DNA of 11,609 nt, taken from contig JBFJWU010000074.1 of assembly GCA_041623475.1 (NCBI GenBank), forward strand, positions 1 to 11,609. The letters run 5' to 3'. Both the position numbers and the translations under genes were made by a program. The notes beneath the pieces are model-generated. The model had not been told where the DNA came from, searched no databases, and saw only the letters and a program-made list of their open reading frames with translations. This DNA is from JBFJWU01 sp041623475 [NCBI: bacterium] (lineage in GTDB: Bacteria; J088). Position 1 is the stretch's first letter. Every line of letters begins with the position of its first letter. Below, piece after piece: positions 1-11,609 of the stretch.

Positions 1-61
1 GCGAGGACGGCTGTGCGAGGACAGCGCCGCAAATTGCCTGAAGCCGACCACCGTAGAAGGT
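1..61. repeat. Partial copy (right arm) of a palindromic repeat element
   Basis: This stretch aligns with 127-186 at roughly 80% identity by eye, including the 13-base block GCGAGGACGGCTG and the 17-base block GCGAGGACAGCGCCGCA. It is the right arm of a palindromic unit whose left arm and apex would lie to the left of the window. The shift between copies is about 126 bp. Within the arm, the octamer GCGAGGAC itself occurs twice, 13 bp apart. It has no protein-coding character that I trust. Whether more copies follow to the left cannot be seen. Confidence 0.75.
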
Positions 62-186
62 GTGCAGATTTGCGTGAGATGTGGTGATGCCCGCAGCAAA
101 GACGCCGCAGACATAGCAGCGCTATGGCGAGGACGGCTGCGCGAGGACAGCGCCGCAGATTGCGTAAAGCTGCACACCGGAAAGGT
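59..186. repeat. Long imperfect palindrome (REP/BIME-like extragenic element)
   Basis: The element folds on itself around position 119. The outer arms GGTGTGCAG (59-67) and CTGCACACC (170-178) are perfectly complementary. The apex is a perfect 6-bp hairpin with a 3-base loop, CATAGC-AGC-GCTATG (112-126). Between them the arms match at a little over half of positions, so the full structure is a roughly 120-nt hairpin with internal mismatches. The element ends where the imuB stop codon lies (186-188). Candidates are a REP/BIME-type extragenic palindrome or a small non-autonomous element. As RNA it could also stabilise or end the imuB message, but no T-run terminator is visible. A minus-strand reading frame runs from an ATG at 114 off the left edge; I take this as a by-product of the repeat. 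Confidence 0.75.
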
Positions 187-1655
187 TATTCGACGCGGCC
201 CTGGCGTACCCACCGCCTCCGCACCCGGTCAAAGTACAGCCAGTCAATCCCGCCCCCGGACCGGGCGACGAACTGATATTCGCGACGCACCAGTTGCTGC
301 CACCAGCCACCGCTCAGCAGGTAAGACCCCAGCCGTGCTGGCCAATGACGCTCATCGACTGCAGCTGGTGCACATAGTGGCGGTTGCTGCAGTCGTTGTG
401 GCCTTGCCAGGACACGGCGAACCAGCGACGGCTGCTGGACAACCTGGGCTCGTGGTGGGTTGAGTTCTGAAAACGGTTCCCAGGTAACTCGGGCCTCGGG
501 CAGGTGCCCTGGCCGCAGGCGCGGCTGCAGCACCGCCTCGGCACCAAATTCTGCCCGCACCCGTGCCATGGCCCGCTGGGCCGCGTCCTGGTCCCGCTGC
601 TTGTGCCGTTCCAACAGGTCCCGGTTCCGGGGCGAAACGGGTTCGCTGTCGGCGGTCATGGTCAGTTCGACAATACCGCTGCGTACAGGAATCGATGCCA
701 GCCGCAGGCGGATCAGGTCCAGCAACGTCCGCCGGCACCACGTGGGCACCGCCGGCTGGATTGTGTCCTGGACACGCTGGCCATCCTCCAGGACAAATAC
801 CAGGTGCAATCGGCAAACCAGTTCCTGCTGTGCTTCCAGTTCCGTAATAATGTTGTGCAGCAGGCGTTTGATCAGGAATAACAATCGTTCCTGGTTGGTT
901 TCGGCATCATCCAGGTATTGACGGCGGCGGGCGGGCACAGGCAACACTTGCCCCCGTAACGGCCGCCGGATTTCCCCCCGCGCCTCGCGATAGATCTGCC
1001 AGACCTGGTCACCGTAACGGTCGCGTACGCCCGTTGCCGGCAACCGCACCAGATCCCCGATCGTACTAACCGCCAGATGTTCCAGTTGCTGCAGGACCCG
1101 GGCCGGTATCGGCAGGCGCCGCAGCTGGACATTGTTGCAGGCCATGCGCTCCTGCTTGTTACTGGCCAGGACCGTTACCCTTCGACGGGTCCGCGCCACA
1201 GCCCAGGTGCCGAAGCGCGAAAATCCGACCACCGGCACAGCCCGCAGGCCATGGGCCTGCAAGTCACGTTGCAGCTGAGTCGCCCACGTCTTCAATGAAT
1301 CATACAGATTGCCCAGTCCGGACGCGTCCAGCCAGAAAATGCCCGGCTCGTCGGGACTGGGTTCGACCACCGGACTATAGCGGCTCAGCCTGCGATGAAT
1401 GTCAAGGACCGCTGTGTCAATTTCCGGCTGCCCAACGGTTTCGGCACACAGATCCGGGTCCAGCGACAACCCGGCAGCATATTTCATCCCCGGCAGGATA
1501 CTGGCGGACCGAGCCCGTTCGTTGACCCACAGTATTGGGCTTTGGGGTTTATCCTGGGCGACGACCGCGACCGGTCGGCCGCACCATTCGGGGCGCCGGC
1601 GCAACAGCAACTGCAAAGGCAGTGCCGGAATATCAATGCAGGCCGTCCGGTCCAC
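186..1655 (-). CDS. imuB: ImuB, catalytically inactive Y-family polymerase homologue
   Basis: ImuB is the hub of the SOS-induced mutasome: in characterised systems it bridges the beta clamp, ImuA and the error-prone polymerase DnaE2 during translesion synthesis. The 489-residue product has a Y-family palm at its N-terminus (CIDIPALPLQLLL, 6-18), a helix-hairpin-helix region near 185-214, a little-finger region to about 335, and the conserved ImuB tail with SGGWW (448-452) and REYQFVARSGG (458-468). The first catalytic Asp is kept (D8), but the Asp-Glu pair of active Y polymerases reads LDASG (D110, A111), so no activity is expected. I chose GTG at 1655, preceded by GAGAG with four bases spacing, because family alignment begins here. 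An upstream ATG at 1763 would overlap imuA by 131 bp and add 36 unrelated residues. The gene overlaps imuA by 23 bp, implying coupled translation. Confidence 0.92.
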   Translation of the reverse strand: MDRTACIDIPALPLQLLLRRRPEWCGRPVAVVAQDKPQSPILWVNERARSASILPGMKYAAGLSLDPDLCAETVGQPEIDTAVLDIHRRLSRYSPVVEPSPDEPGIFWLDASGLGNLYDSLKTWATQLQRDLQAHGLRAVPVVGFSRFGTWAVARTRRRVTVLASNKQERMACNNVQLRRLPIPARVLQQLEHLAVSTIGDLVRLPATGVRDRYGDQVWQIYREARGEIRRPLRGQVLPVPARRRQYLDDAETNQERLLFLIKRLLHNIITELEAQQELVCRLHLVFVLEDGQRVQDTIQPAVPTWCRRTLLDLIRLRLASIPVRSGIVELTMTADSEPVSPRNRDLLERHKQRDQDAAQRAMARVRAEFGAEAVLQPRLRPGHLPEARVTWEPFSELNPPRAQVVQQPSLVRRVLARPQRLQQPPLCAPAAVDERHWPARLGSYLLSGGWWQQLVRREYQFVARSGGGIDWLYFDRVRRRWVRQGRVE

Positions 1656-2340
1656 AATACTCTCGCTGCACCACCCATCCCGGTCCGTGCTGTTTGTCCT
1701 TGACGATTTCAATTTCGACCCGGAAGCGACTGTCCCCCAGGCGCTCGCAACGAACCTGTCCACGCAGTGACACCATAGAGCCCAGCGATGGATGGTTACG
1801 GGCCTTGCGGGTCAGGCACAGCAGGGCAGAATCATGGGCACGGGCCAGTTGCAGCAGGCGACCCTGCAGGGGCGTCGGCAGAATGGCGCTGGCACCCAGA
1901 TCGACAATAACCAGGCCAAAAGCGCCGGACCTCAGCAATTTGTCGGCAACTCGACCTGCGGCCTGCGCACCATCCACCCGAACCATAGCCAGTGCACCCA
2001 GGTCCACACCGCTTTCGACCGCGTCCGGTGCAAAAAATGTATCTGGCATCGCGCTGATCCAGGCCACAAATTCACCTTCGGCCTGGGCATCAACGACCAG
2101 TTGCGTGGCACCGCTCAGCAAACCATCACCGTCAGTAGAAGACAGCTCGCATAAACGCCCAGCCAGGGCTTGCCGGTCCCAGCGCCGCTGGCCAGGTGCA
2201 TCAGGAAGATATCCGGGAACACCGGCGTGAGGACTGAGGCGCTGTGGGTGTGGCATTCCGGCGCGCAACAATCGTACAGTCGCCCGGGCCTGCGAGGGGA
2301 ATGCAGCCTGTTGTTGGATCACGGCTTCCGGACGGGCCAT
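1633..2340 (-). CDS. imuA: ImuA, RecA-like SOS mutagenesis accessory protein
   Basis: ImuA is a diverged RecA/SulA-related protein that works with ImuB and DnaE2 in damage-induced mutagenesis. The product is 235 residues. A Walker B-like strand is visible (GLVIVDLG, 142-149). The region where RecA has its P-loop (about 67-82, TDGDGLLSGATQ) lacks the GKT signature, so ATP binding is doubtful. That is common in ImuA proteins. The assignment rests mainly on position between lexA and imuB plus this RecA-like core. The start ATG (2340-2338) shares one base with the lexA stop in the sequence TGATG, the typical arrangement for termination-reinitiation coupling. Its 3' end overlaps imuB by 23 bp. Expression should follow the lexA promoter upstream. 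Confidence 0.85.
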   Translation of the reverse strand: MARPEAVIQQQAAFPSQARATVRLLRAGMPHPQRLSPHAGVPGYLPDAPGQRRWDRQALAGRLCELSSTDGDGLLSGATQLVVDAQAEGEFVAWISAMPDTFFAPDAVESGVDLGALAMVRVDGAQAAGRVADKLLRSGAFGLVIVDLGASAILPTPLQGRLLQLARAHDSALLCLTRKARNHPSLGSMVSLRGQVRCERLGDSRFRVEIEIVKDKQHGPGWVVQREYCGPDGLH

Positions 2341-2945
2341 CAGTCCAGCCTCCGCCGAACTTCGACAACCCGGCCGAGGATCTCGAAACGTTCACCATTG
2401 GCCACAGGGACAATCGGCGCATACTGGTCGTTTTCCGGATGCAGCTCAACTCGACCGCCCACTTCACGATAGGTCTTGACCGTGGCCTCGTCACCGACAA
2501 TGGCAACAACGATGTCCCCTGGACGGGCACTGGGCTGGCGTCGGACCAGGACGGTGTCGCCGGGCAGGATACCGGCGTTCAACATACTTTCGCCGCGGAC
2601 CCGCAGGGCAAACATACCATCGGCACGGTCGGCTTCGATCGGCAGGTAACCATCAGGGTATTCAATGGCGGTGGTCAACTGGCCGGCCTGGACCTGACCC
2701 AGCATCGGCACCAGTGTCGATGCCACCGGCTGGTCAGGCAGGCGATATCCCCGGGCCTGGCCATCGTTTTTGACCAGTTTGCCCTCGGCCACCAGGGCCT
2801 CCAGATGCTGCCGGGCAGACTGGACCGCCCTGAAACCGAACGCATCCTGGACCTCGCGCGTGGTGGGCGGGATCCCTTGCAGGATTCGCTGCCGGACAAA
2901 CTCAAAAACCCGCCTGCGGGTCTGACCTGGGCGACTGTAAGCCAT
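2340..2945 (-). CDS. lexA: LexA SOS repressor (S24 self-cleaving)
   Basis: LexA represses SOS genes and is inactivated when RecA filaments stimulate self-cleavage. This 201-residue protein has the N-terminal winged helix (about 1-70, with PPTTREVQDAFGF) and the C-terminal S24 peptidase domain. The cleavage site is Ala87-Gly88 in GQVQAG, the nucleophile is Ser120 in RGESML, and the general base is Lys157 in EATVKTY, nearly the same positions as in E. coli LexA. The recognition helix (AVQSARQHLEAL, 40-51) differs from the RSPNAAEEHLKAL of E. coli, fitting a different operator. Co-location with imuA and imuB is typical of the LexA paralogues called LexA2 in pseudomonads and xanthomonads; whether the genome has a second lexA cannot be seen. 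It should repress its own operon through the palindrome at 2961-2974. Confidence 0.95.
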   Translation of the reverse strand: MAYSRPGQTRRRVFEFVRQRILQGIPPTTREVQDAFGFRAVQSARQHLEALVAEGKLVKNDGQARGYRLPDQPVASTLVPMLGQVQAGQLTTAIEYPDGYLPIEADRADGMFALRVRGESMLNAGILPGDTVLVRRQPSARPGDIVVAIVGDEATVKTYREVGGRVELHPENDQYAPIVPVANGERFEILGRVVEVRRRLD

Positions 2946-2953
2946 GGTTCAGC

Positions 2954-2982
2954 ATGAAAACAGACAAATGTCTGCTTGTCAA
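2954..2982 (-). promoter_or_regulatory. lexA-imuA-imuB promoter
   Basis: On the minus strand a perfect -35 box TTGACA (2982-2977) is followed after 17 bp by TTTCAT (2959-2954), which matches four of six positions of the -10 consensus. Transcription would then begin near 2947, one or two bases before the lexA ATG at 2945. No Shine-Dalgarno sequence is visible before that ATG. The lexA message is therefore predicted to be leaderless or nearly so. The operator at 2961-2974 lies wholly inside the spacer. Confidence 0.7.
2961..2974. promoter_or_regulatory. Probable LexA operator, CAGACA-N2-TGTCTG
   Basis: The 14-bp sequence CAGACAAATGTCTG has perfect 6-bp arms around a two-base centre. It lies between the -35 and -10 boxes of the lexA promoter, so bound repressor would block RNA polymerase. 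It differs from the enterobacterial CTGT-N8-ACAG box, in keeping with the changed recognition helix of this LexA. Assignment to LexA is inferred from autoregulation being the rule for lexA genes. I saw no second copy of this box in the window. Confidence 0.7.
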
Positions 2983-3073
2983 ATCAAAAGACCCCGTCCC
3001 CGGGAATGCCTGTTTTGGGGCGACATTCCGGTCCGTCGATAGTGGCCTGGTTGTTGATGCCCGACCGGGGCAA

Positions 3074-3937
3074 TCAGGACGACGCGGTATCGCCCAGTGT
3101 ATATCCGCAGACGCGACAGAAGCGCGCATCCGATGCAATGATGACTGTTGAACAATCAGGACAGCGTCGTTCGGCCTCTGCCGTATTACGCAGGTATGAC
3201 AGTTCCGATGTCACAATCCCGGTCGGCACAGCAATGATCGCATATCCCATAATCATCACTACTGAAGCGCAGAACTGCCCCAGTGGTGTCTGCGGCGCGA
3301 TATCGCCATAGCCAACCGTGGTCAGCGTCACAATCGCCCAATAGATGCTACTGGGAATGCTGGTGTAACCGTGCTCCGGCCCCTCAATCACATACATCAA
3401 TGAACCGATGACAATCACCAGCGTCAGGACGGCATAGATAAACACGCCGATTTTTCGCCGACTGGCCCGCAACGCCTGCATCAGCAGGTTCGCCTCTTTC
3501 ATATACAGCGTCAGCTTGAGGATACGGAAGATCCGCAGCAACCTCAGCACACGGACAATCATCAGGTAATGCCCCTTGGGCAACAGCAGCCCCAGGAACG
3601 TCGGCAGGACGGACAGCAGGTCAATAATGCCAAAGAAGCTGAGCGCGTATCGCAGCGGACGTTTGACGCACAGCAACCGGACAATGTATTCGATGCTGAA
3701 CAGAATGGTAAAGCCCCATTCCACGACAATCAGGGCCGTGCCATAGGCCTCGCGAAAAGAAGCCATGCTTTCCAGCACCACAGCCAGGACACTGCCCAGG
3801 ATCGCAAAAATCAATACCAGGTCAAATGCCCGTCCCAGGCCAGGTTCGGACTCAAAAATAACGTGGTACAACGCCTGCCGAATCTTGCCCTCGGCTGGCT
3901 GGAAATAGGTTTTCTGGGGCTGGATCTGCATGTTCAT
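3074..3937 (-). CDS. Voltage-gated potassium channel with C-terminal zinc ribbon
   Basis: This 287-residue inner-membrane protein has the six-helix Kv layout: S1 about 37-56, S2 70-89, S3 98-116, S4 125-142, S5 164-183, pore loop, S6 219-240. The selectivity filter is TTVGYGD (206-212), diagnostic for K+. S4 carries basic residues at exactly every third position (R129, R132, R135, R138, K141), so voltage sensing should be intact. After S6 the cytoplasmic tail ends in a zinc ribbon with CPDC (259-262) and CRVC (274-277). No RCK or cyclic-nucleotide domain is present. The ATG at 3937 follows AGGGA at suitable spacing. The gene stands alone, divergent from the histidine kinase at 4154 and upstream of lexA in the same direction with a 128-bp gap. 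Its physiological role, probably membrane-potential or K+ control, is not shown by context. Confidence 0.93.
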   Translation of the reverse strand: MNMQIQPQKTYFQPAEGKIRQALYHVIFESEPGLGRAFDLVLIFAILGSVLAVVLESMASFREAYGTALIVVEWGFTILFSIEYIVRLLCVKRPLRYALSFFGIIDLLSVLPTFLGLLLPKGHYLMIVRVLRLLRIFRILKLTLYMKEANLLMQALRASRRKIGVFIYAVLTLVIVIGSLMYVIEGPEHGYTSIPSSIYWAIVTLTTVGYGDIAPQTPLGQFCASVVMIMGYAIIAVPTGIVTSELSYLRNTAEAERRCPDCSTVIIASDARFCRVCGYTLGDTASS

Positions 3938-4104
3938 GACATCCCTGTGCGGTATGGACCATTATTATTCCAGAGTAACCCCGCCAGGCCAGTGACCGGG
4001 TCAATGCCTGAATTCATGGATCAGCAGGCAACTGATTTCGCCATTGGCGATTATTGAACCGATTTTGGGTAGTATATGCGTGTGCCTTGGGGGGGCACCA
4101 TTAA

Positions 4105-4133
4105 TTGGAACTTTCGATGCGACCCCTGATATT
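4105..4133 (+). promoter_or_regulatory. Possible promoter of the histidine kinase gene
   Basis: TTGGAA (4105-4110) and GATATT (4128-4133) are separated by 17 bp and each matches four of six consensus bases. Transcription would start near 4140, giving a leader of about 14 nt that contains the GAGG ribosome-binding site (4144-4147). The rest of the 216-bp divergent spacer (3938-4153) holds only a small GC-rich stem, GTGCC/GGCAC around 4082-4098, and no promoter for the potassium channel that I can defend. Confidence 0.35.
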
Positions 4134-4153
4134 AATTACATTCGAGGCCCCGC

Positions 4154-5941
4154 GTGCCGCAAGGAACTGACATTCTTAGAGACCTCAGGCTTCTAAGGCT
4201 TGGGGCCATCGCAATAGCTGCCCTTGCATTCTGGCTGCTTTTCGGAGCCGTCAATAAAATCAATTCAGCCATCGAGCAGAACACCGTTGAACGGGAACGT
4301 CAACTACTGTTGACAGAACTGGTCAGTGCCGTCGAACTGCTGGACGAGAAGACGGCCGAGGCTGTTCGCCTGGCTGCGTCTACCGGTGAACAGAAATACC
4401 GCGACACCTATCAGAACTCAATCCGCAAGCTTGACCGATCCCTGGACATGCTGGCGACAGCCCTGGAAACAGATCGGCAGTCGCTGCGACTGGACAAACC
4501 ACAACACGACCGCCTGCGAAAACTGGAAAACCGTGTGTTTGAATTGATTGCTGACGGCGATTCTGATGCCGCGCGGCAACTGGCGTTTGGTGATGCCTAT
4601 ATTGAGCTGACCGACCAGTTTTCCGGTATCTATATTTCCTATGTTTCGGCGGTCCAGCAGCTCGCTGCCGATGCGGGCGAAGCATCGGCAGCCACGCTGC
4701 AACAGGCAATCCGTTCTGCCATCGGGCTGGTATTGCTGTTTATTGTCAGCCTCGTCGGCGGACTGGCCATCGTGTCCCGGCAGAACCGCAAAATCAGGGA
4801 GTCACGCCAGGAGATACTTCGACGTGAACAATTACAGGCGTTGTATCTGGAAACCATTCCCGTCGCAATTATTATTGCCTCGGAAAAACGTGAAATCATT
4901 TTTGAGAATTATGTTGCCCGGGAGATGTTTTCAAACCGGACAGCCGAATATATTGCGACGACGTCCGAATCCAGCAGGGGTATTTTTGCAAACAGCAATG
5001 AAGATGGCGAACCCGAACCTGTCGACCTGATTGCCGAGGCACTGCAGAAGGGAACCATAGGGCACGACAATTTGTTTTTTTACCGCGGCGACTGGCCGGA
5101 ACCCATCTATGCCCAATGCATTGGCAAGGTTGCGGAACCGACAGACACAGGTGACCGATCAATCATTCTGGCAATCAGCGACATCACGTCCCAGATCCGC
5201 ATTGCCGAACGTCTGCGACACGTTCTGGAGGAATCGGAATTGAACCGTCAAAGCAAGGAACGGTTTTTCGCGGCACTGACGCATGACCTCAAAACGCCGC
5301 TGACGGCAATTATCGGCAACGCCGGCATGCTGGAATTTGATGCCTCGAATTCTGAGCTGCCTGACTTCGTCGACTATGGCAAGACGATCAAGCGGTCCGG
5401 GGAACGGTTGTTGAAGCTGATCGAGGAAATCATGGAAGTCAGCCGTGCCCAGTCGGGGCGACTGGAACTGGATATTGCCGAACTCGACCTCCCATCGTTC
5501 CTGTCGGAACTGGTCTCCCAGCTGGAGGCCGTGACCTCGATCAACAACAATCAATTGTCCGTCGATGTCGACGACGACGTTGGCTCGATCCATACTGATG
5601 AACATCGATTGCACCAGATCCTGTCCAACCTGGTCTCGAACGCTGCCAAGTTCACATCGGATGGCACCATCACGATCAAGGCCGCGAATGTCGAAAGCGG
5701 CATTCGCATCGCTGTCAGGGATACCGGCATCGGCATGACCAGTGAAGAGCTGGAACGGGCCTTTGAAGCCTATACCCAGGCGTCCAGCTCAACGGCCCGG
5801 AAGTTTGGCGGCACTGGCCTGGGCCTGACCATCTGCCGTGAACTGACAGGCAAACTGGGCAGCGTCCTGCAAGCCACCAGCGCACCCGGTGAAGGGACCG
5901 AGTTTTATTTCGTCCTGAAGGACCTGCAGTCGCAGTCGTAA
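4154..5941 (+). CDS. Membrane-bound PAS sensor histidine kinase (orphan)
   Basis: This 595-residue kinase has TM1 at about 14-33 and TM2 at 188-207, enclosing an extracytoplasmic, mostly helical sensor region of about 150 residues that I cannot match to a named domain. A PAS-like domain follows (about 227-345, starting LETIPVAIIIASEKREIIFEN). Then comes the DHp domain with phospho-acceptor His377 in FFAALTHDLKTPL, and the ATPase domain with N box (HQILSNLVSNAAKF, 487-500), G1 DTGIGM (523-528) and G2 GGTGLGL (552-558). All catalytic motifs look intact. There is no receiver or Hpt domain. The start is GTG at 4154, with CGAGG six bases upstream. No response regulator gene is adjacent, so its partner is unknown. 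It is convergent with the cytochrome operon, 10 bp apart, which gives no evidence that it controls that operon. Confidence 0.93.
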   Translation: MPQGTDILRDLRLLRLGAIAIAALAFWLLFGAVNKINSAIEQNTVERERQLLLTELVSAVELLDEKTAEAVRLAASTGEQKYRDTYQNSIRKLDRSLDMLATALETDRQSLRLDKPQHDRLRKLENRVFELIADGDSDAARQLAFGDAYIELTDQFSGIYISYVSAVQQLAADAGEASAATLQQAIRSAIGLVLLFIVSLVGGLAIVSRQNRKIRESRQEILRREQLQALYLETIPVAIIIASEKREIIFENYVAREMFSNRTAEYIATTSESSRGIFANSNEDGEPEPVDLIAEALQKGTIGHDNLFFYRGDWPEPIYAQCIGKVAEPTDTGDRSIILAISDITSQIRIAERLRHVLEESELNRQSKERFFAALTHDLKTPLTAIIGNAGMLEFDASNSELPDFVDYGKTIKRSGERLLKLIEEIMEVSRAQSGRLELDIAELDLPSFLSELVSQLEAVTSINNNQLSVDVDDDVGSIHTDEHRLHQILSNLVSNAAKFTSDGTITIKAANVESGIRIAVRDTGIGMTSEELERAFEAYTQASSSTARKFGGTGLGLTICRELTGKLGSVLQATSAPGEGTEFYFVLKDLQSQS

Positions 5942-5945
5942 CCGG

Positions 5946-5961
5946 GCGGGCTCAGTCCCGC
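5946..5961. terminator. Weak hairpin between convergent genes
   Basis: GCGGG (5946-5950) and CCCGC (5957-5961) form a 5-bp GC stem with a 6-base loop right after the histidine kinase stop and overlapping the end of the convergent cytochrome gene. It could act from both directions, but neither strand has a following T-run, so it is only a possible terminator. Confidence 0.25.
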
Positions 5962-6698
5962 AGTGATTTGACGTAAAGGATCAGCGACTCCAACTCGCCG
6001 CCAACCACTTCATCACCCCACGCCGGCATACGTGGGGAACGACCGACAGCCGCACCACCTTCGGCAATAATCCGGCGCAGGTATGCATCGTCGATCTGGC
6101 TTTTGGTCAGGTTGAATGGTGGCGGATCCTTGATGAAATTAGACAGTTTCCCGTCTCCTTGGCCCGAGTATCCGTGACACAGGACGCAACGGGTCAGGAA
6201 TATTTCGCGGCCCTTTTTGTAGGTTGGCTTGTACGAATGTGATGCCTGCCGTACCAGCTCCAGGGCACGGGCGGTATCGGTTCGCAGCAGTTCAACAAAA
6301 TCGACGACCGATTCCAGTCCGATGCATGTTAATTCATCTGACCACGGTGGCATCCGGGGATCGACGCCAGACACACCGCCTCCTAAATAAACGACCTTGC
6401 GTATGTCCGCGCGGCTCTGCCCATGTTTAGGCTCAAGCAGGCTGGTCGACGGATAATCATCGACCCGGACTGGCACCGCCCCTTCGCCCATTCCCTTCGG
6501 GCCGTGGCACAGACTGCACTGGTCCAGATAAATCCGGGCACCGTATTCGACCGAAACCGGTACAGGATCGTTTGTGGTTTCGGGAACAGGATTGGTTTCG
6601 GCTGGCGGTTTGGCTCGAGATCCGCAGAACTCTGAACCGTTCGCGGACGACGCAGAGAAAAATATTATCGTACCGATGGCCGCCAGACCGAGCCTCAT
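5952..6698 (-). CDS. Periplasmic di-heme cytochrome c (tandem class I domains)
   Basis: This is a 248-residue exported electron carrier with an N-terminal signal sequence (about 1-20) followed by a Pro/Thr-rich linker. It has two cytochrome c domains. Domain 1 binds heme through CSLCH (61-65) with Met116 in RMPPW as the likely distal ligand. Domain 2 binds heme through CVLCH (171-175) with Met224 in RMPAW. The two domains resemble each other and probably arose by duplication. The ATG overlaps the stop of the cupredoxin gene as ATGA, implying coupled translation, and it is the last gene of a three-gene redox operon. It likely passes electrons between the membrane respiratory chain, the cupredoxin and the di-heme peroxidase, but direction and partners are inference. 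Cys25 and Cys125 are outside heme motifs; Cys25 is not in a convincing lipobox. Confidence 0.9.
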   Translation of the reverse strand: MRLGLAAIGTIIFFSASSANGSEFCGSRAKPPAETNPVPETTNDPVPVSVEYGARIYLDQCSLCHGPKGMGEGAVPVRVDDYPSTSLLEPKHGQSRADIRKVVYLGGGVSGVDPRMPPWSDELTCIGLESVVDFVELLRTDTARALELVRQASHSYKPTYKKGREIFLTRCVLCHGYSGQGDGKLSNFIKDPPPFNLTKSQIDDAYLRRIIAEGGAAVGRSPRMPAWGDEVVGGELESLILYVKSLRD

Positions 6699-7150
6699 TC
6701 TTTTGCGGCCTTGTCGCTTCCGGATTGGTCAGATCCGGATTTCTCTTTTTCGCCTTTGCCCGATTCACCCTTTTGATCGCCGGTAACCACCTCAATTGTC
6801 ATATGCATCTTGGGGTGAATGGCACATTCAACCTCCACGGTCCCCTCTTCTTCAAAAACGACATCCCGGGCTTCCCCCTGGGGATATGACCCCAGGTCAA
6901 ACGACTTTATTGGTGAAAGGCTGTATACATTGTGAAAAAACGGATCATTGTTTTCGAACGAAACCGTTTCGCCCTTTTTGATCGTTAATTTGTCGACCGT
7001 AAACTGTTTGTTCTTCTGGCCCACGACGTACTGGGTTGATTTCTTTCCCGGTTCCGGGGTATCACCAGCCGCGCGGACCGGCGATGCGGTCATCGACACC
7101 CCAAGGACCAGGACGAATCCCAGCAGGTGCAATTCAGATTTTGCCTTCAT
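6695..7150 (-). CDS. Exported blue-copper (cupredoxin) protein
   Basis: This 151-residue protein has a signal peptide (1-28, cleavage probably near VRA-A) and a plastocyanin-like domain (about 38-122). Type 1 copper ligands are visible: His73 in FFHNVYSL, then Cys109, His112 and Met115 in ECAIHPKM. The short Cys-x2-His-x2-Met loop belongs to a cupredoxin family often labelled methylamine utilisation protein and often found near di-heme peroxidases, though nothing here points to methylamine. After the fold comes a hydrophilic tail rich in Gly, Lys, Glu, Ser and Asp (124-151) of unknown purpose. I chose ATG at 7150 because AAGGAG (7162-7157) lies six bases ahead and a signal peptide starts there. 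A longer in-frame start at 7219 would run into the peroxidase gene and lacks these signals. It sits 31 bp after the peroxidase gene and overlaps the cytochrome gene by four bases. Confidence 0.9.
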   Translation of the reverse strand: MKAKSELHLLGFVLVLGVSMTASPVRAAGDTPEPGKKSTQYVVGQKNKQFTVDKLTIKKGETVSFENNDPFFHNVYSLSPIKSFDLGSYPQGEARDVVFEEEGTVEVECAIHPKMHMTIEVVTGDQKGESGKGEKEKSGSDQSGSDKAAKE

Positions 7151-7181
7151 TTTTTTCTCCTTAAACAATACGGGGCGCTGG

Positions 7182-8216
7182 TCAGGGAACCGGAAACCCG
7201 GCGAATCGTTGCGTATCACAGCTCAATGATTCGAGAAACGAAACGACTTTGTCAATTTCTGATGGTTCCAGATTAGCGGGTTTGAACGACGGTGACAGAT
7301 TGGTATCGGTTTCAAAGCCATCCACATAATGCCGCACGGCCTCTGCCAAAGTACTGGCCGACCCGTCATGGAAATACGGTGCCGTGTGGGCAATGTCCCT
7401 CAGTTGGGACGTTTTAAAAGCCCCGTGGACGATGCGCAGTGGCACGACACCATAACGGCCGGGGTCACCGCCGGAACCGGACGATAGACCGATATTGTGA
7501 AATCCGTCATCACTGAAGGTCGGCGGTTGGTGGCAGACGGCGCAGTTTCCTTTGTCCTCGGCAACAAACAGCTTGAACCCCGCAACCTCGTCCACGGACA
7601 GCGCCTGATCATCCCCCGCTACCCATTGGTCAAACCGGGAGTCATCACAGACCAGGGTTGACTGAAAATCCGCAAGCGCCTGCGCAATTCTATCCATATC
7701 TACTTGATCGTCCCCAAAGGCCCGCCTGAAGGCGCGCCTGTATGACCGCGAATCTGCTACTCGTTGCTGCAATTGGGACAGGGACAGATCCATTTCCTCG
7801 CTGCTGCGCACAGGCACCAGTGCCTGTGCGTGCAATGAATCGGCGCGGCCATCCCAAAACAGAAACCCGTATCGGGCGCTGTTGATGACAGACGGCGTAT
7901 GGCGGCCAAGTCTGTTGCCATTGACCCCGTTATTGAATGACTGGCCATCCGCCCAATGCAGCGAAGGAATGTGACATGTCGCACAGGACATGGTGCCGGG
8001 ACCGCTCAATTGGGGGTCAAAAAACAATGCCTGTCCCAGAGCGACAGATTCCGGATTGACCGGCGGCAATGGATTCAACTGCCAGGCGGATTTCTGGTCC
8101 GGGCTGACAGTGTCGCTATTGGCATCAGCCTCGACTAGCAACAACGGCCAGACGATCGCTGTCGCGCACCACACTGAAATGAACTGTCGAAAATTCATGT
8201 TGGGAAACACCTTCAT
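7182..8216 (-). CDS. Di-heme cytochrome c peroxidase / MauG-family protein
   Basis: This exported 344-residue protein belongs to the bacterial di-heme peroxidase superfamily (CcpA, MauG, MbnH), which reduces hydrogen peroxide or oxidises protein side chains in the periplasm. An N-terminal hydrophobic segment (about 13-30) serves as signal peptide. The N-terminal heme domain has CATCH (78-82), followed by the family motif FWDGRADSL (120-128) with Trp121, the residue between the hemes in MauG. The C-terminal heme domain has CAVCH (225-229) and the family motif TAPYFHDGS (278-286). The axial ligand that would separate classic peroxidase from MauG-type enzyme cannot be decided by eye. The start is uncertain: ATG at 8216 has no clear ribosome site, while ATG at 8198 (residue 7) follows AAGGTG at a somewhat long distance. 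It is the first gene of the operon with the cupredoxin and di-heme cytochrome, plausible electron donors. Confidence 0.92.
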   Translation of the reverse strand: MKVFPNMNFRQFISVWCATAIVWPLLLVEADANSDTVSPDQKSAWQLNPLPPVNPESVALGQALFFDPQLSGPGTMSCATCHIPSLHWADGQSFNNGVNGNRLGRHTPSVINSARYGFLFWDGRADSLHAQALVPVRSSEEMDLSLSQLQQRVADSRSYRRAFRRAFGDDQVDMDRIAQALADFQSTLVCDDSRFDQWVAGDDQALSVDEVAGFKLFVAEDKGNCAVCHQPPTFSDDGFHNIGLSSGSGGDPGRYGVVPLRIVHGAFKTSQLRDIAHTAPYFHDGSASTLAEAVRHYVDGFETDTNLSPSFKPANLEPSEIDKVVSFLESLSCDTQRFAGFPVP

Positions 8217-8317
8217 AAAACTGCGTTCGTGCCCCCCAACACGATCAAATCGATTTTACATTATCAATAAACGGTGCCGGCACACTAGTCCCCGGCTTGC
8301 ACAGAGATCATATCGTG

Positions 8318-8340
8318 AATCCAGACCGAATTCCAGACCG
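8318..8340. promoter_or_regulatory. Tandem direct repeat in the divergent spacer
   Basis: AATCCAGACCG (8318-8328) is followed at once by AATTCCAGACCG (8329-8340), a 12-bp spaced direct repeat, and a shorter echo, AGTCCAG, occurs at 8354-8360. It lies in the 198-bp spacer (8217-8414) between the divergent peroxidase operon and the lipoprotein gene. TAAGAT at 8372-8377 could be a -10 box for the lipoprotein gene, which would put the repeat about 45-65 bp upstream of the start of transcription, a usual activator position. No good -35 box is visible. The rest of the spacer near 8240-8275 is AT-rich and includes the palindrome AAATCGATTT, probably promoter DNA of the peroxidase operon. Confidence 0.3.
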
Positions 8341-8414
8341 GTGAAGCGATCAGAGTCCAGTTCCTGGCTGCTAAGATGCAGACGTGAGTCCGAAAGCAGT
8401 GACCAGGCCCAGCG

Positions 8415-9497
8415 GTGAACGTTAGCCAGTTGATTGTGATCGCAACGACCGCCGGCATTCTTTCGGCCTGCGGCGGCGACCGGTTTGCCGTCGCGCCGGA
8501 ACTGCGCCCCCCTGATGATTATGTATTTACACCGTTCAATTGGCTGGACAGGGCTCCGGATTCGGTCGCGACATTCCTGTGTCCCTCAGCACAGGACGAA
8601 TCGCTGGCCGCCGACGAAATCTTTATCGAATGCAGCATCGAGGGCATCCGCCCTGTCGCCGCGCCCCCCCGGCCGGTAACTGCATTGACAGTCATGGCTT
8701 ACAATTTCGAGCGCGGACAGGAGTTTGACCAACAGCTTGCCTGGTTTACAGGACCAGACGCACCGCATATTGACATCCTGCTGGCCAGCGAGGTCGACCG
8801 CGGCTGCAAACGCAGTGGCAATCGCCACGTTGCTGCCGAACTGGCCGCCGCCATGGACATGTACGTGGTGTTTGCTGTGGAATTTGTCGAACTGGCACGT
8901 CCCGGCAATTCCAGCGGCATTATTGACCACGCCTGCGAGCACGGCAACGCGATCCTGTCACGCTATCCCCTGGGCAATGTCGCGCAAATCCGCCATCGCA
9001 GCAATCGGTCCTGGTTTATTCCGGTGACGGACCGGACCGACGGCACGCAACCGCGACTGGGCGGACGTATTGCCATCGGTGCCGACGTACAGGTTGGCAA
9101 GGCGGCGTTAAGACTGGTTGTCCTGCACTTTGAAAGCGATCCCGCCGACGAAGACATTCGCAGGGACCAGGCACAGGAATTGGTCGAATTGGCCGCTGGA
9201 CAGCAGTTGGCAACAATCATCGGTGGCGACACCAACGCGGCGTTTTATCTGGGCGATCTGGTCGAAGGGACACGAAATGACGGTGCGACGGCACCATTCC
9301 TGGATGCCGGGTTTACGGACAGTCACGTTACGGTCCCGTTGGAAGATCGCGGAACCATCGACATTGGCGTCCCAATCGACCTGATTTTTGCCGACAGGGA
9401 CCGGTTTTTCAGTCCGGTCATCTGCGCCCGCAACCAGTGCGGCGACCTCAGTGATCACCTGCCGGTCTGGGCCGGGTACGCGCTGGCAAACGACTGA
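8415..9497 (+). CDS. Lipoprotein of the endonuclease/exonuclease/phosphatase fold
   Basis: This is a predicted 360-residue lipoprotein: a short signal sequence ends in the lipobox LSAC with Cys19 as the lipidated residue. The domain from about 90 to 356 follows the EEP (DNase I-like) fold. Active-site elements in order are Asn97 (MAYNFERG), Glu126 (LLASEVDRG), HGNAILSRYPL (177-187), His238 (VVLHFES), Asp272 and Asn274 (IIGGDTNA), Asp322 (IDLIFAD), and Asp346-His348 (SDHLPVW). The complete metal and catalytic set argues for an active phosphodiesterase or phosphatase acting outside the cytoplasm. The substrate may be nucleic acid, a phospholipid or an inositol-type phosphate and cannot be read from sequence. 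GTG at 8415 is chosen because the signal sequence begins there; its ribosome site is weak. The stop shares a base with the start of the FAD monooxygenase gene (TGATG). Confidence 0.88.
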   Translation: MNVSQLIVIATTAGILSACGGDRFAVAPELRPPDDYVFTPFNWLDRAPDSVATFLCPSAQDESLAADEIFIECSIEGIRPVAAPPRPVTALTVMAYNFERGQEFDQQLAWFTGPDAPHIDILLASEVDRGCKRSGNRHVAAELAAAMDMYVVFAVEFVELARPGNSSGIIDHACEHGNAILSRYPLGNVAQIRHRSNRSWFIPVTDRTDGTQPRLGGRIAIGADVQVGKAALRLVVLHFESDPADEDIRRDQAQELVELAAGQQLATIIGGDTNAAFYLGDLVEGTRNDGATAPFLDAGFTDSHVTVPLEDRGTIDIGVPIDLIFADRDRFFSPVICARNQCGDLSDHLPVWAGYALAND

Positions 9498-10645
9498 TGC
9501 AGGTCACGATTATTGGCGGGGGAATTGGCGGACTGACCCTGGCACTTACCCTGCGCCGACAGGGAATTGCTGCGCGTGTTTTTGAACAAGCCCCTGAAAT
9601 ACGGCCTGTTGGGGCCGGCATTACGCTGGGCGCCAACGCATTGCGGGTCTGCCAGAAACTGGAAATTATCGATCACATTACTGCCGCCGGGACACCGCTG
9701 CGACGATTCAGCATTGGCAGCCATTCCGGCGCACTCATCAGCACATTTGACATGTCCGCGGTCGTCCCGGACCTGGCGACGCCCGCTGTGGGTATCCATC
9801 GAGCCAACTTGCATAGAATCCTTTTGGCCGGCCTGGATTCGGACCAGCTGGCCCCCGGGCATCGCCTGACTGAAATTCATCAGGGCGCGGATGATGTCGT
9901 CGCCGTTTTTGCCAACGGGCATGCGGAACCGGGCACGATATTGATCGGTGCGGATGGACTTGGCTCAACGGTGCGTACCCGGATTCTCGGCGAATCCTCT
10001 ACCAGAGATGCCCGCCAGATCTGTTTCCGCGGGGTCTGCCCTGTTGGGGACATTTCGTGGGTGATGGACGAGTCCCGGGAAATCTGGGGACCCGGGGGCA
10101 GCCGCATCGGCATCGTGCCAATCGCAACCGACACGCTCTACTGGTTCGCAACATTTCCGACAGATTTGTTGTTGAACCTGGCTGACAACCCGTTGCCTGT
10201 GCTGGAACAATGGTTCGCCGATTGGCACTCGCCAATCCCGCAGGTCATCGCCGCCACCACTGCAGCGACGATCCTGCGCAACGATCTGTACGATCGCCTG
10301 CCCATCCGAGGGTGGTCGCAGGACAGGGTTGCCCTGCTGGGCGATGCGGTCCATCCAACGACCCCTAACCTCGGCCAGGGAGCAGCCATGGCGATCGAAA
10401 GTGCGGCCGTCCTTGGCAACTGCCTGGCCCAGTGCGGCGACATTCATGAAGCGTTTGCGACATACGAAAACCTGCGCCAACGACGGACCCGCCGAATCAC
10501 AAAACAATCGTGGCGGATTGGCCAGATTGCAACAATCCGGAATCCGGTCCTCGCCCGCGTGCGAAACCTGGGGGCCCGGGTTCTGGCGCCGTTCAACAAC
10601 CAGCAAATGTGCTGGGTCTTGAATCATCGAATTCCGATAGGTTGA
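9497..10645 (+). CDS. FAD-dependent aromatic-type monooxygenase (PHBH/UbiH superfamily)
   Basis: This 382-residue cytoplasmic flavoprotein has the three sequence marks of group A flavin monooxygenases. These are the N-terminal dinucleotide fold GGGIGG (7-12) with Glu30 closing the second strand, the DG motif in IGADGLGSTVR (150-160), and the GD motif in VALLGDAVHPTTPNLGQG (278-295). Such enzymes take NAD(P)H and oxygen to hydroxylate or epoxidise an organic substrate. The closest resemblance by eye is to salicylate hydroxylase, 6-hydroxynicotinate or zeaxanthin epoxidase-like members rather than a specific Ubi enzyme; the substrate is unknown. Length is normal for the family. Translation is coupled to the lipoprotein gene by a one-base overlap (TGATG at 9495-9499), an unusual partner for this family. 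The nucleotidyltransferase-fold gene begins 52 bp downstream on the same strand. Confidence 0.92.
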   Translation: MQVTIIGGGIGGLTLALTLRRQGIAARVFEQAPEIRPVGAGITLGANALRVCQKLEIIDHITAAGTPLRRFSIGSHSGALISTFDMSAVVPDLATPAVGIHRANLHRILLAGLDSDQLAPGHRLTEIHQGADDVVAVFANGHAEPGTILIGADGLGSTVRTRILGESSTRDARQICFRGVCPVGDISWVMDESREIWGPGGSRIGIVPIATDTLYWFATFPTDLLLNLADNPLPVLEQWFADWHSPIPQVIAATTAATILRNDLYDRLPIRGWSQDRVALLGDAVHPTTPNLGQGAAMAIESAAVLGNCLAQCGDIHEAFATYENLRQRRTRRITKQSWRIGQIATIRNPVLARVRNLGARVLAPFNNQQMCWVLNHRIPIG

Positions 10646-10685
10646 ATGCCGGGACCGGGATATGGCGCGTTAGCCGTGCAGACAC

Positions 10686-10700
10686 CACAGTTAAACTGTG
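10686..10700. promoter_or_regulatory. Perfect 15-bp palindrome over a start codon
   Basis: CACAGTT-A-AACTGTG is a perfect inverted repeat with 7-base arms. It lies in the 52-bp gap after the monooxygenase gene, and its last three bases are the proposed GTG start of the following gene. As DNA it could be an operator. As RNA it could form a six-pair stem with a UAA loop that hides the start codon. There is no T-run after it, so a terminator is unlikely. Confidence 0.45.
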
Positions 10701-11609
10701 AACGAGTATTTTCCAGTTTCCCCGTGCCCACTATTGAACAACCAACTTGACCATGCTGCAACGAATGCAAATATCGAATCGATCGGGTTAGGTTCGCGCC
10801 TGATTTCACAGGCCTGTACGGTCGCCGCGACATACAGTTCCATTTTTCGCTATCCGCTGACGTTGTCTGAATTGCGACTGCTGGCACCAGCCAGGATTGA
10901 CCGCGAACTGACCGCGACAGACCTGGCGGATCCGGACTGGGCGACCCATTGGGCTGACGTTGATGGACTGATCACGCCCAGCGGTTGCGAAACCTATGCC
11001 AGCGAACGCCTGATAAAGAACCGAATCGCCGACGACCGTCTGTCCGCCTGTACACCGATTGCCCGCCGCCTCGGCAAAATTCCCTTTATCGCCGGAATTG
11101 CCGTGTCCGGATCACAGGCAGCACGCAATCCAGGCGAAGACGCCGATTTTGACCTGTTCATCATTTGCCGGACTGGACGACTTTGGACGTCTCGATTTCT
11201 GGTCAAGTTAATTGCCAAATTCTGGCATCCGCAGGGATTGAACCTGTGTGCCAATTACTTTATGACCGAGGACTCCCTGGACCTCCCGGTCTTGGCACAG
11301 AACTATTACACAGCCTGCGAGGTAACCAACCTTGTGCCGATTGCCGGCGGAGACGTGTTCAGACGATTCTATCGGGCAAACCGATGGACGACCAGGTTCC
11401 TGCCGAACAGGACAGTGCCGGCACAGGTCTCGACAGTGGCCGAACCACGGCCTGGTCTTCTGGACGCTGTTCTCCAAACACCGGTGGGCGGCGCAACTGA
11501 AATGCTGCTGCGTTTCTGGCAGATGTTTTACACGTGGATACGCCTTCGGTCCCGGGACGGCATTACCTGGCAAGATGTCAACGCGTCCTACCGCGCCAAC
11601 CGGCAGGGA
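10698..11609 (+). CDS. Nucleotidyltransferase-fold protein, 3' end outside window
   Basis: An open frame runs 304 codons from GTG at 10698 to the window end without a stop; an in-frame TAA sits at 10692-10694. The N-terminal part (about 25-55, with IFRYPLTLSELR) resembles the helical start seen in a conserved family of uncharacterised nucleotidyltransferase-like proteins. The core shows the polymerase-beta type signature VSGSQAARNPGEDADFDLF, with Gly138-Ser139 and the acidic pair Asp150 and Asp152. It is followed by family features RLWTSRFLVKL (158-168) and LNLCANYF (181-188). An NMP transfer activity is possible but unproven, and I do not know the substrate. The start is uncertain: no ATG is near, GTG lies inside a palindrome without a clear ribosome site, and TTG at 10734 is the alternative. 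It probably shares a transcript with the two genes before it. Confidence 0.8.
   Translation, partial: MNEYFPVSPCPLLNNQLDHAATNANIESIGLGSRLISQACTVAATYSSIFRYPLTLSELRLLAPARIDRELTATDLADPDWATHWADVDGLITPSGCETYASERLIKNRIADDRLSACTPIARRLGKIPFIAGIAVSGSQAARNPGEDADFDLFIICRTGRLWTSRFLVKLIAKFWHPQGLNLCANYFMTEDSLDLPVLAQNYYTACEVTNLVPIAGGDVFRRFYRANRWTTRFLPNRTVPAQVSTVAEPRPGLLDAVLQTPVGGATEMLLRFWQMFYTWIRLRSRDGITWQDVNASYRANRQG

What the first reader, a model, noticed from the sequence alone, without database searches (positions are those of the whole stretch)
1..186. Tandem long palindromes abutting the imuB stop codon
One full (59-186) and one partial (1-61) copy of a roughly 120-bp imperfect palindrome repeat with a period of about 126 bp. 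The apex CATAGC-AGC-GCTATG and outer 9-bp arms are perfect, while the middle is diverged; copies are about 80% identical. This is larger than usual REP units and lies exactly at the 3' end of an SOS operon. It could be a BIME-like family, a small mobile palindrome, or an RNA structure that stabilises or limits imuAB mRNA.
Basis: partly seen in the sequence, partly recalled or inferred. Interest (0 to 1): 0.6.

Follow-up and report, generated by a model that had tools for sequence, protein, structure and literature searches.

The report
Tandem mobile-type hairpin repeats beside imuB
Next to a bacterial DNA-damage gene sit one and a half copies of a long DNA hairpin whose central part recurs, with matched changes on both sides of its stem, in scattered repeats of other bacteria, so it is a real and probably mobile hairpin family rather than something made for that gene.

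Summary
An imperfect palindrome at 59-178 and the right half of a second copy at 1-53 (46 of 53 identical, period 126) lie beside imuB, 7 nt beyond its stop codon. None of 178 control windows folds as far beyond its shuffles.

It belongs to a family. Its centre recurs in dispersed palindromes of two genomes of one phylum (3 cores in 0.99 Mb of G728; 8 in 1.17 Mb of G855, six in 0.80 Mb fetched blind), in two viral contigs and on a Comamonas plasmid. A covariance model built without the window finds it at E 3.8e-9 in 1.12 Mb; the next match is E 0.022. Over 15 cores, 16 of 21 pairs show changes on both sides; an asymmetric internal loop is nearly invariant. Outer ends differ between hosts; some are terminal inverted repeats.

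Best reading: a non-autonomous hairpin element, MITE-like or REPIN-like; no SOS role is supported. A 2009 Geobacter paper mentions a 24-copy family with a closely similar centre. Rfam gave no match. The host is unidentified.

The parts
1..53 (+). Right arm of a second, tandem copy (its apex and left arm lie outside the window)
   Evidence: 87% identical to 127-179; model R1 matches 1-30 as a copy cut off at its 5' end, weakly (20.2 bits, E 0.1)
54..58 (.). Linker between the copies (TAGAA); with it AAGGT recurs at 57-61 and 182-186
   Evidence: sequence
59..178 (+). Complete palindrome (copy 2); the strand that folds best is +
83..156 (+). Conserved hairpin core shared with other genomes: CCGCAG (105-110), apex 112-126, GAGGA (129-133)
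   Evidence: window-free model R3 matches 84-156 at 43.8 bits, E 3.8e-9; alignments A2, A4
112..126 (+). Apex hairpin CATAGC-AGC-GCTATG
   Evidence: fold
186..1763 (-). imuB reading frame; stop codon 186-188
   Evidence: ORF; Pfam IMS E 1.4e-9
1633..2340 (-). imuA-like reading frame
   Evidence: NCBIfam ImuA E 2.3e-7, below its curated cut-off (30.9 against 150 bits)
2340..2945 (-). lexA
   Evidence: TIGR00498 151.7 bits, above cut-off; Pfam

Best explanation
The repeat is a tandem pair of a non-autonomous hairpin element of a widespread family. Shown: a central hairpin with a nearly invariant asymmetric internal loop and covarying stems; dispersed copies in other genomes; terminal inverted repeats on several of them. 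Inferred: copies spread by transposases encoded elsewhere (MITE-like where terminal repeats exist, or REPIN-like through a folded single strand), and the centre is kept because it must fold as single-stranded DNA or RNA. In this window a copy came to lie just beyond the imuB stop codon and was tandemly duplicated after the palindrome had formed, since the two right arms agree better (46 of 53) than the two arms of one copy (41 of 57). Any effect on imuB mRNA would be a by-product.
For: Of 220 genomes searched with 1-190, the two with matches at E <= 0.001 (G728, three places; G855, one) all have the match at the exact centre of a long palindrome. The three G728 copies are 89-93% identical over about 180 bp on three contigs. 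Model R1 found six further copies (E 1.7e-9 to 0.002) in 0.80 Mb of G855 fetched blind, one more in contig C1 (E 9.7e-5), and a second copy on viral contig L253 that the search pattern had not matched (E 1.2e-5). Model R3, built without the window, finds the window at E 3.8e-9, next best 0.022. 94.9% of 276 cells paired, 16 of 21 pairs changed on both sides, 59 such cells against 22.2 in shuffles (0 of 500), 2-11 in slid structures. Ends: TAGTGG... in 7 of 8 G855 copies (4 by blast, 3 by eye), GGAACCTCTGA-type in G728, L252 and L253, GAACGTGTTTACGATCTC in Comamonas.
Against: No terminal repeat or certain target duplication is visible in the window copy or in the apex-sharing G855 copy. No transposase was tied to the family. 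In the host neither copy number nor mobility is known. In the six loci whose neighbours I read (window, L127, L128, L130, L131, L254) the motif strand is opposite to every visible neighbour except one gene beside L130; that strand bias is not expected of blind insertion and is unexplained. A4 was fitted to R1 and holds several near-copies from one genome, so cells are not independent events.
Confidence: 0.6

Rival explanations
1. The core is a transcribed structured RNA with a regulatory function of its own, as the Geobacter authors assumed for their 24-copy family; here it would be antisense to imuB or an independent small RNA.
For: Covarying stems with an asymmetric, nearly invariant internal loop look like an RNA motif. 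The + strand folds better than the - strand (-64.4 against -52.7), and 14 of its 16 arm mismatches are G-T or A-G. The paper calls its family predicted short RNA elements (passages). The motif strand is mostly opposite to its neighbours.
Against: No promoter-like site was found at 1-3200 (sigma-70 type only). Copies sit beside unrelated genes and several have transposon-like ends. The mismatch bias is partly explained by the strand being 61% purine. DNA parameters also favour the + strand (-35.9 against -26.9), so folding does not tell RNA from single-stranded DNA.
Confidence: 0.17
2. A hairpin kept for imuB: it ends, protects or attenuates the imuAB(-dnaE2) message.
For: It lies 7 nt beyond the imuB stop codon. 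Of 19 other imuB 3' ends scanned, three (L088, L099, L091) have an inverted repeat above all their own controls. The Geobacter element also separates genes said to be co-transcribed (dapAB and dapL).
Against: No terminator-like site at 1-190 on either strand. The imuB sense strand is the one that folds less well. No relative's imuB end carries the family: best E 0.28 anywhere in 43 loci; the L099 hairpin reaches only E 0.75. The family occurs beside unrelated genes elsewhere.
Confidence: 0.13
3. A true REP/BIME/REPIN moved by a RAYT in the host.
For: Alternating right-left-right arms, tandem period, long hairpin; REPINs form tandem clusters (PMC3116915, passages).
Against: No RAYT among the 12 reading frames scanned. 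Several family members have terminal inverted repeats of other types. A GTAG lies at 53-56 after copy 1 only, which chance easily gives.
Confidence: 0.07
4. Chance or assembly artefact.
For: It lies at the very start of the window and is GC-rich.
Against: The arms have diverged (16 mismatches), whereas artefactual inversions are expected to be identical; match to independent genomes at E 3.8e-9.
Confidence: 0.03

Closest known systems
[quoted passage not shown] legend and passages seen, not the sequences)
   Same: Multicopy, intergenic, central palindrome GRCGTAGCGCTGCTACGCC, which on the other strand is GGCGTAGCAGCGCTACGYC: 15 of 19 bases agree with window 110-128 and TAGCAGCGCTA is identical; the A-T for G-C change at the fourth base keeps its pair. 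One copy separates co-transcribed genes.
   Different: Whether those copies have the GNA/GA loop, long arms or terminal repeats could not be seen. The paper reports Geobacter species and Desulfotalea only.
REPIN / BIME (REP doublets; PMC3116915, PMC3733652, passages)
   Same: Inverted arms forming a long hairpin, tandem clusters, extragenic places
   Different: No RAYT and no GTAG or CGTC tag pattern shown; the most conserved part is the centre, whereas REPINs conserve the ends and vary the spacer
ERIC / RU-1 and other enterobacterial MITE-like repeats (PMC2759123, passages)
   Same: Size (127 bp), long imperfect hairpin, non-autonomous
   Different: No match in 5,426 E. coli genomes by blastn; those have TA ends and TA duplications, not seen here

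Membership tests
Hairpin-core family described here | Conserved core (CC-GNA, apex, GA-GG-A) found by a model that does not contain the window | tested here: met
   R3: 43.8 bits, E 3.8e-9 in 1.12 Mb; next E 0.022.
Hairpin-core family described here | Several dispersed copies in the genome | not testable with these tools
   No host genome held; the rest of the window holds none. Met in G728 and G855
Geobacter predicted short RNA elements (PMC2700814) | Central palindrome GRCGTAGCGCTGCTACGCC | tested here: inconclusive
   15 of 19 bases agree by eye; sequences not available
REP/REPIN with RAYT | RAYT (Y1-type) gene | tested here: inconclusive
   None in 12 window reading frames; host genome not searchable
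REP/REPIN with RAYT | Conserved inverted ends with GTAG or CGTC tag and variable middle | tested here: not met
   The conserved part is the centre; a single GTAG at 53-56, none in the same place after copy 2
MITE | Terminal inverted repeats with target-site duplication | tested here: inconclusive
   Window: outer 9-bp arms and AAGGT at 57-61 and 182-186, which also fits tandem units; clear terminal repeats in other members
Rfam family | Score above gathering threshold | tested here: not met
   0 matches for the window and for L127-L130; at E up to 5 only three poor matches in 1-400
Intrinsic terminator | GC-rich stem followed by a run of T | tested here: not met
   none at 1-190 on either strand

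The most novel reading that the evidence does not exclude
One conserved hairpin module, with an asymmetric internal loop (GNA opposite GA, plus a bulged A) kept while its stems change freely, sits at the centre of palindromic elements with unrelated outer ends in distant bacteria, on a plasmid and on viral contigs. It would be a portable folded DNA or RNA part, recognised by an unknown protein, that many miniature elements have acquired.
Probability: 0.35. Interest if true: 0.7.

Novelty: new variant of a known kind. Interest (0 to 1): 0.5.

Why it matters
Multicopy palindromes are usually described genome by genome. A shared, covarying core in elements with different ends suggests that one folded motif is under selection in distant bacteria, and Rfam gave no match for it. 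That gives a concrete motif with which to seek the protein that binds it and to ask whether the folded strand is DNA or RNA. For imuB the result is a caution: a striking structure beside a stress operon turned out to belong to a widespread repeat.

Tried and rejected
Rejected: an SOS-specific element (no member at the imuB loci of relatives); DGR repeats (the copies differ at other bases than A; no reverse transcriptase in the 12 frames scanned); attC site (by eye, motif recalled); a repeated protein (126 is a multiple of 3 and the + frame 2-463 is open, but Pfam finds nothing); a described Rfam RNA; an assembly inversion (arms diverged).

Led nowhere: ImuB found no relative in genome contigs. 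Phage and plasmid blastn of 1-250 gave matches covering at most 27% of the query in the rows listed, with best E 0.06 there. Five viral patterns gave 0 loci; a sixth gave one locus, L211, which is no long palindrome and is not found by R1. LexA in viral contigs gave two distant relatives. Placing the host failed: ImuB is at most 46% identical over most of its length (up to 51% over fragments): 10 of 199 Planctomycetota-like genomes at E <= 1e-60, 18 of 80 of the phylum of G019 and G007 (the same 80), 0 of 398 Pseudomonadota at 1e-40, 0 of 30 mixed at 1e-30, 3 of 298 of the phylum of G004; the kinase 0 of 321 at 1e-70; the last ORF 4 of 60, weakly. The palindrome as DNA in 78 genomes of the G019 phylum gave matches at E <= 1 in 65, the best 27 bases at E 3.5e-4, and in 199 Planctomycetota 2 at E <= 0.001. 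Only 3-10 candidates per genome were scored. Of eight such loci inspected (L106, L107, L125-L130), the four of G728 and G855 are apex-centred long palindromes and the other four are not. Plasmid blastn with a G728 and an L253 copy gave 0, with a G855 copy 1 record.

Limits of the evidence: R1 and R2 contain the window and R2 contains the cores it is credited with, so those scores are by construction; discovery rests on R1, and on R3 for the window. L252 and the first L253 core were found with a core pattern, L254 by similarity to a G855 core. Weak matches also appeared: R1 in L146 (E 0.063), L167 (0.042), L090 (0.24), L225 (0.62); R3 in L058 (0.022), L117 (0.28) and L099 (0.75); I count none of them. 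Searches were each given 100 of the loci held then. The rest of G728 and G855 was not fetched (about 1 and 1.2 Mb of 4.2 and 5.0 Mb were). In the blind part of G728 only a 54-base partial match turned up (L181). Phylum names are read from titles of named loci.

Full report
What is there. The complete copy is an imperfect palindrome at 59-178; the right arm of another copy fills 1-53; the period is 126. The perfect parts are the two outer 9-base arms and the apex; between them lie 16 mismatches and 3 gaps. Against its own shuffles it folds better than any of 178 control windows (z -5.9 and -4.9, best control -3.8). Raw energy is matched elsewhere in the window, and a strict inverted-repeat score does not single it out. 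The imuB stop codon is 7 nt away; imuB, an imuA-like frame and lexA follow on the - strand. imuB is not shortened: many relatives align to its last residue.

Finding relatives. No genome is held for the window. ImuB is at most 46% identical over most of its length to anything seen, so the host stays unplaced. A blastn of 1-190 over 220 genomes of the phylum of G004 (a locus titled Gemmatimonadetes) gave matches at E <= 0.001 in two, G728 (three places) and G855 (one). All four are the exact centre of a long palindrome, with the apex followed by GAGGA in the same orientation. The three G728 copies are 89-93% identical over about 180 bp on three contigs. The two Planctomycetota matches and two are not apex-centred palindromes.

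A covariance model. Five centres (window, three of G728, one of G855) were aligned and modelled as R1. R1 found a second G855 core (E 9.7e-5). In 0.80 Mb of G855 contigs C2 and C5, fetched without knowing what they held, it found six more at E 1.7e-9 to 0.002. In two viral contigs brought in by a core pattern it found three cores, one of which the pattern had not matched (L253 at 7214, E 1.2e-5). A Comamonas odontotermitis plasmid holds another (E 3e-7 in its 6 kb), between two annotated genes. The re-estimated model R2 finds 8 cores in 1.17 Mb of G855, 3 in 0.99 Mb of G728, and in 100 other sources (1.21 Mb) only the window and the Comamonas locus at E <= 1. The fair test leaves the window out: R3, from 15 other cores, scores the window 43.8 bits, E 3.8e-9; the next of 12 listed matches in 1.12 Mb has 20.5 bits, E 0.022. 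Over 43 further loci, including 24 imuB loci of relatives, R3 finds nothing below E 0.28.

Structure. On 15 cores (A4), 94.9% of 276 cells form standard pairs; 16 of 21 pairs have a change on both sides; 59 cells carry such a change against 22.2 in shuffles (0 of 500 reach it) and 2 to 11 in slid structures. The alignment was fitted to R1, which leans towards its structure, and eight cores come from one genome. Nearly invariant are the CC/GG pairs and the asymmetric positions around them: G-N-A on the left, G-A on the right and a bulged A. An asymmetric loop is not expected if only double-stranded symmetry mattered, so a folded single strand, DNA or RNA, is the likely object of selection. That is inference.

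Ends and neighbours. Outside the core the elements differ. Seven of eight G855 cores lie in elements with a TAGTGG... terminal inverted repeat (four by blast, of which two at both ends; three by eye). The G728 copies, L252 and L253 begin or end with variants of GGAACCTCTGA; the L253 element at 7214 runs from TTTAAGGAACC to GGTTCCTTAAA. The Comamonas copy lies between GAACGTGTTTACGATCTC and its inverse. The window copy and the apex-sharing G855 copy show no such ends. Both instead have a directly repeated right arm (period 126 with a left arm between in the window; 67 bp adjoining in G855), and in both the array reaches the 3' end of a gene on the opposite strand (imuB; an ORF that ends at L127 1398). 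In six loci whose neighbours I read, the motif strand is opposite to every visible neighbour except one gene beside L130. That bias is unexplained.

What it is. The simplest account is a non-autonomous hairpin element, MITE-like in several hosts, whose centre is a shared folded module. The tandem arrangement came after the palindrome, since the two right arms agree in 46 of 53 bases and the two arms of one copy in 41 of 57. REPINs form similar tandem clusters (PMC3116915, passages), but their tags, their conserved ends and a RAYT are not shown here.

In print. Searches of the paper library for the apex and the ends (and with other terms; listings) returned one relevant paper, PMC2700814 (passages). 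A legend there describes 24 predicted short RNA elements of Geobacter metallireducens with the central palindrome GRCGTAGCGCTGCTACGCC, similar sequences being found in three other species. Its reverse complement agrees with the window centre in 15 of 19 bases. So the family, or a close relation, was noticed in 2009; its sequences were out of reach, and in these searches I saw nothing on the internal loop or on different ends. Rfam gave no match.

Open: the host and its copy number, what lies left of the window, whether the strand is transcribed, and which protein reads the core.

Noticed in passing
window 2961-2974: Palindrome CAGACA-AA-TGTCTG 16 nt upstream of the lexA start, probably its LexA box. 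CAGACANNTGTCTG also occurs in 6 of 17 related loci searched, upstream of lexA in five (L085, L090, L097, L101, L119) and between lexA and imuA in L102.
   Followed up: partly
window 1-3000 against 3001-11609: The lexA-imuA-imuB stretch has 61-64% GC, the rest 51-62%, which may mean that the cassette came from elsewhere.
   Followed up: no
L088 about 3028-3148: Between imuB and dnaE2 of one relative a near-perfect inverted repeat puts the dnaE2 start into a long stem; it is not of this family.
   Followed up: partly
L099 2991-3083: A 20-bp perfect stem follows imuB, with a T-run further on, where no dnaE2-like start was found; R3 gives only E 0.75.
   Followed up: partly
L253 4781-4844 and 7214-7277: Two copies 2.4 kb apart on one viral contig share their body, but the apex stem has been replaced as a whole with pairing kept.
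   Followed up: partly
L127 1382-1517: G855 array: left arm, apex, and the right arm twice in tandem (period 67, 92%), overlapping the end of the ORF that stops at 1398.
   Followed up: partly
window 5952-8216: A di-haem peroxidase of the MauG kind, a cupredoxin and a two-haem cytochrome c-like protein are encoded side by side.
   Followed up: no
window 3074-3937: Voltage-gated-type ion channel with a C-terminal zinc-ribbon; relatives at 49-62% identity occur in many phyla.
   Followed up: partly
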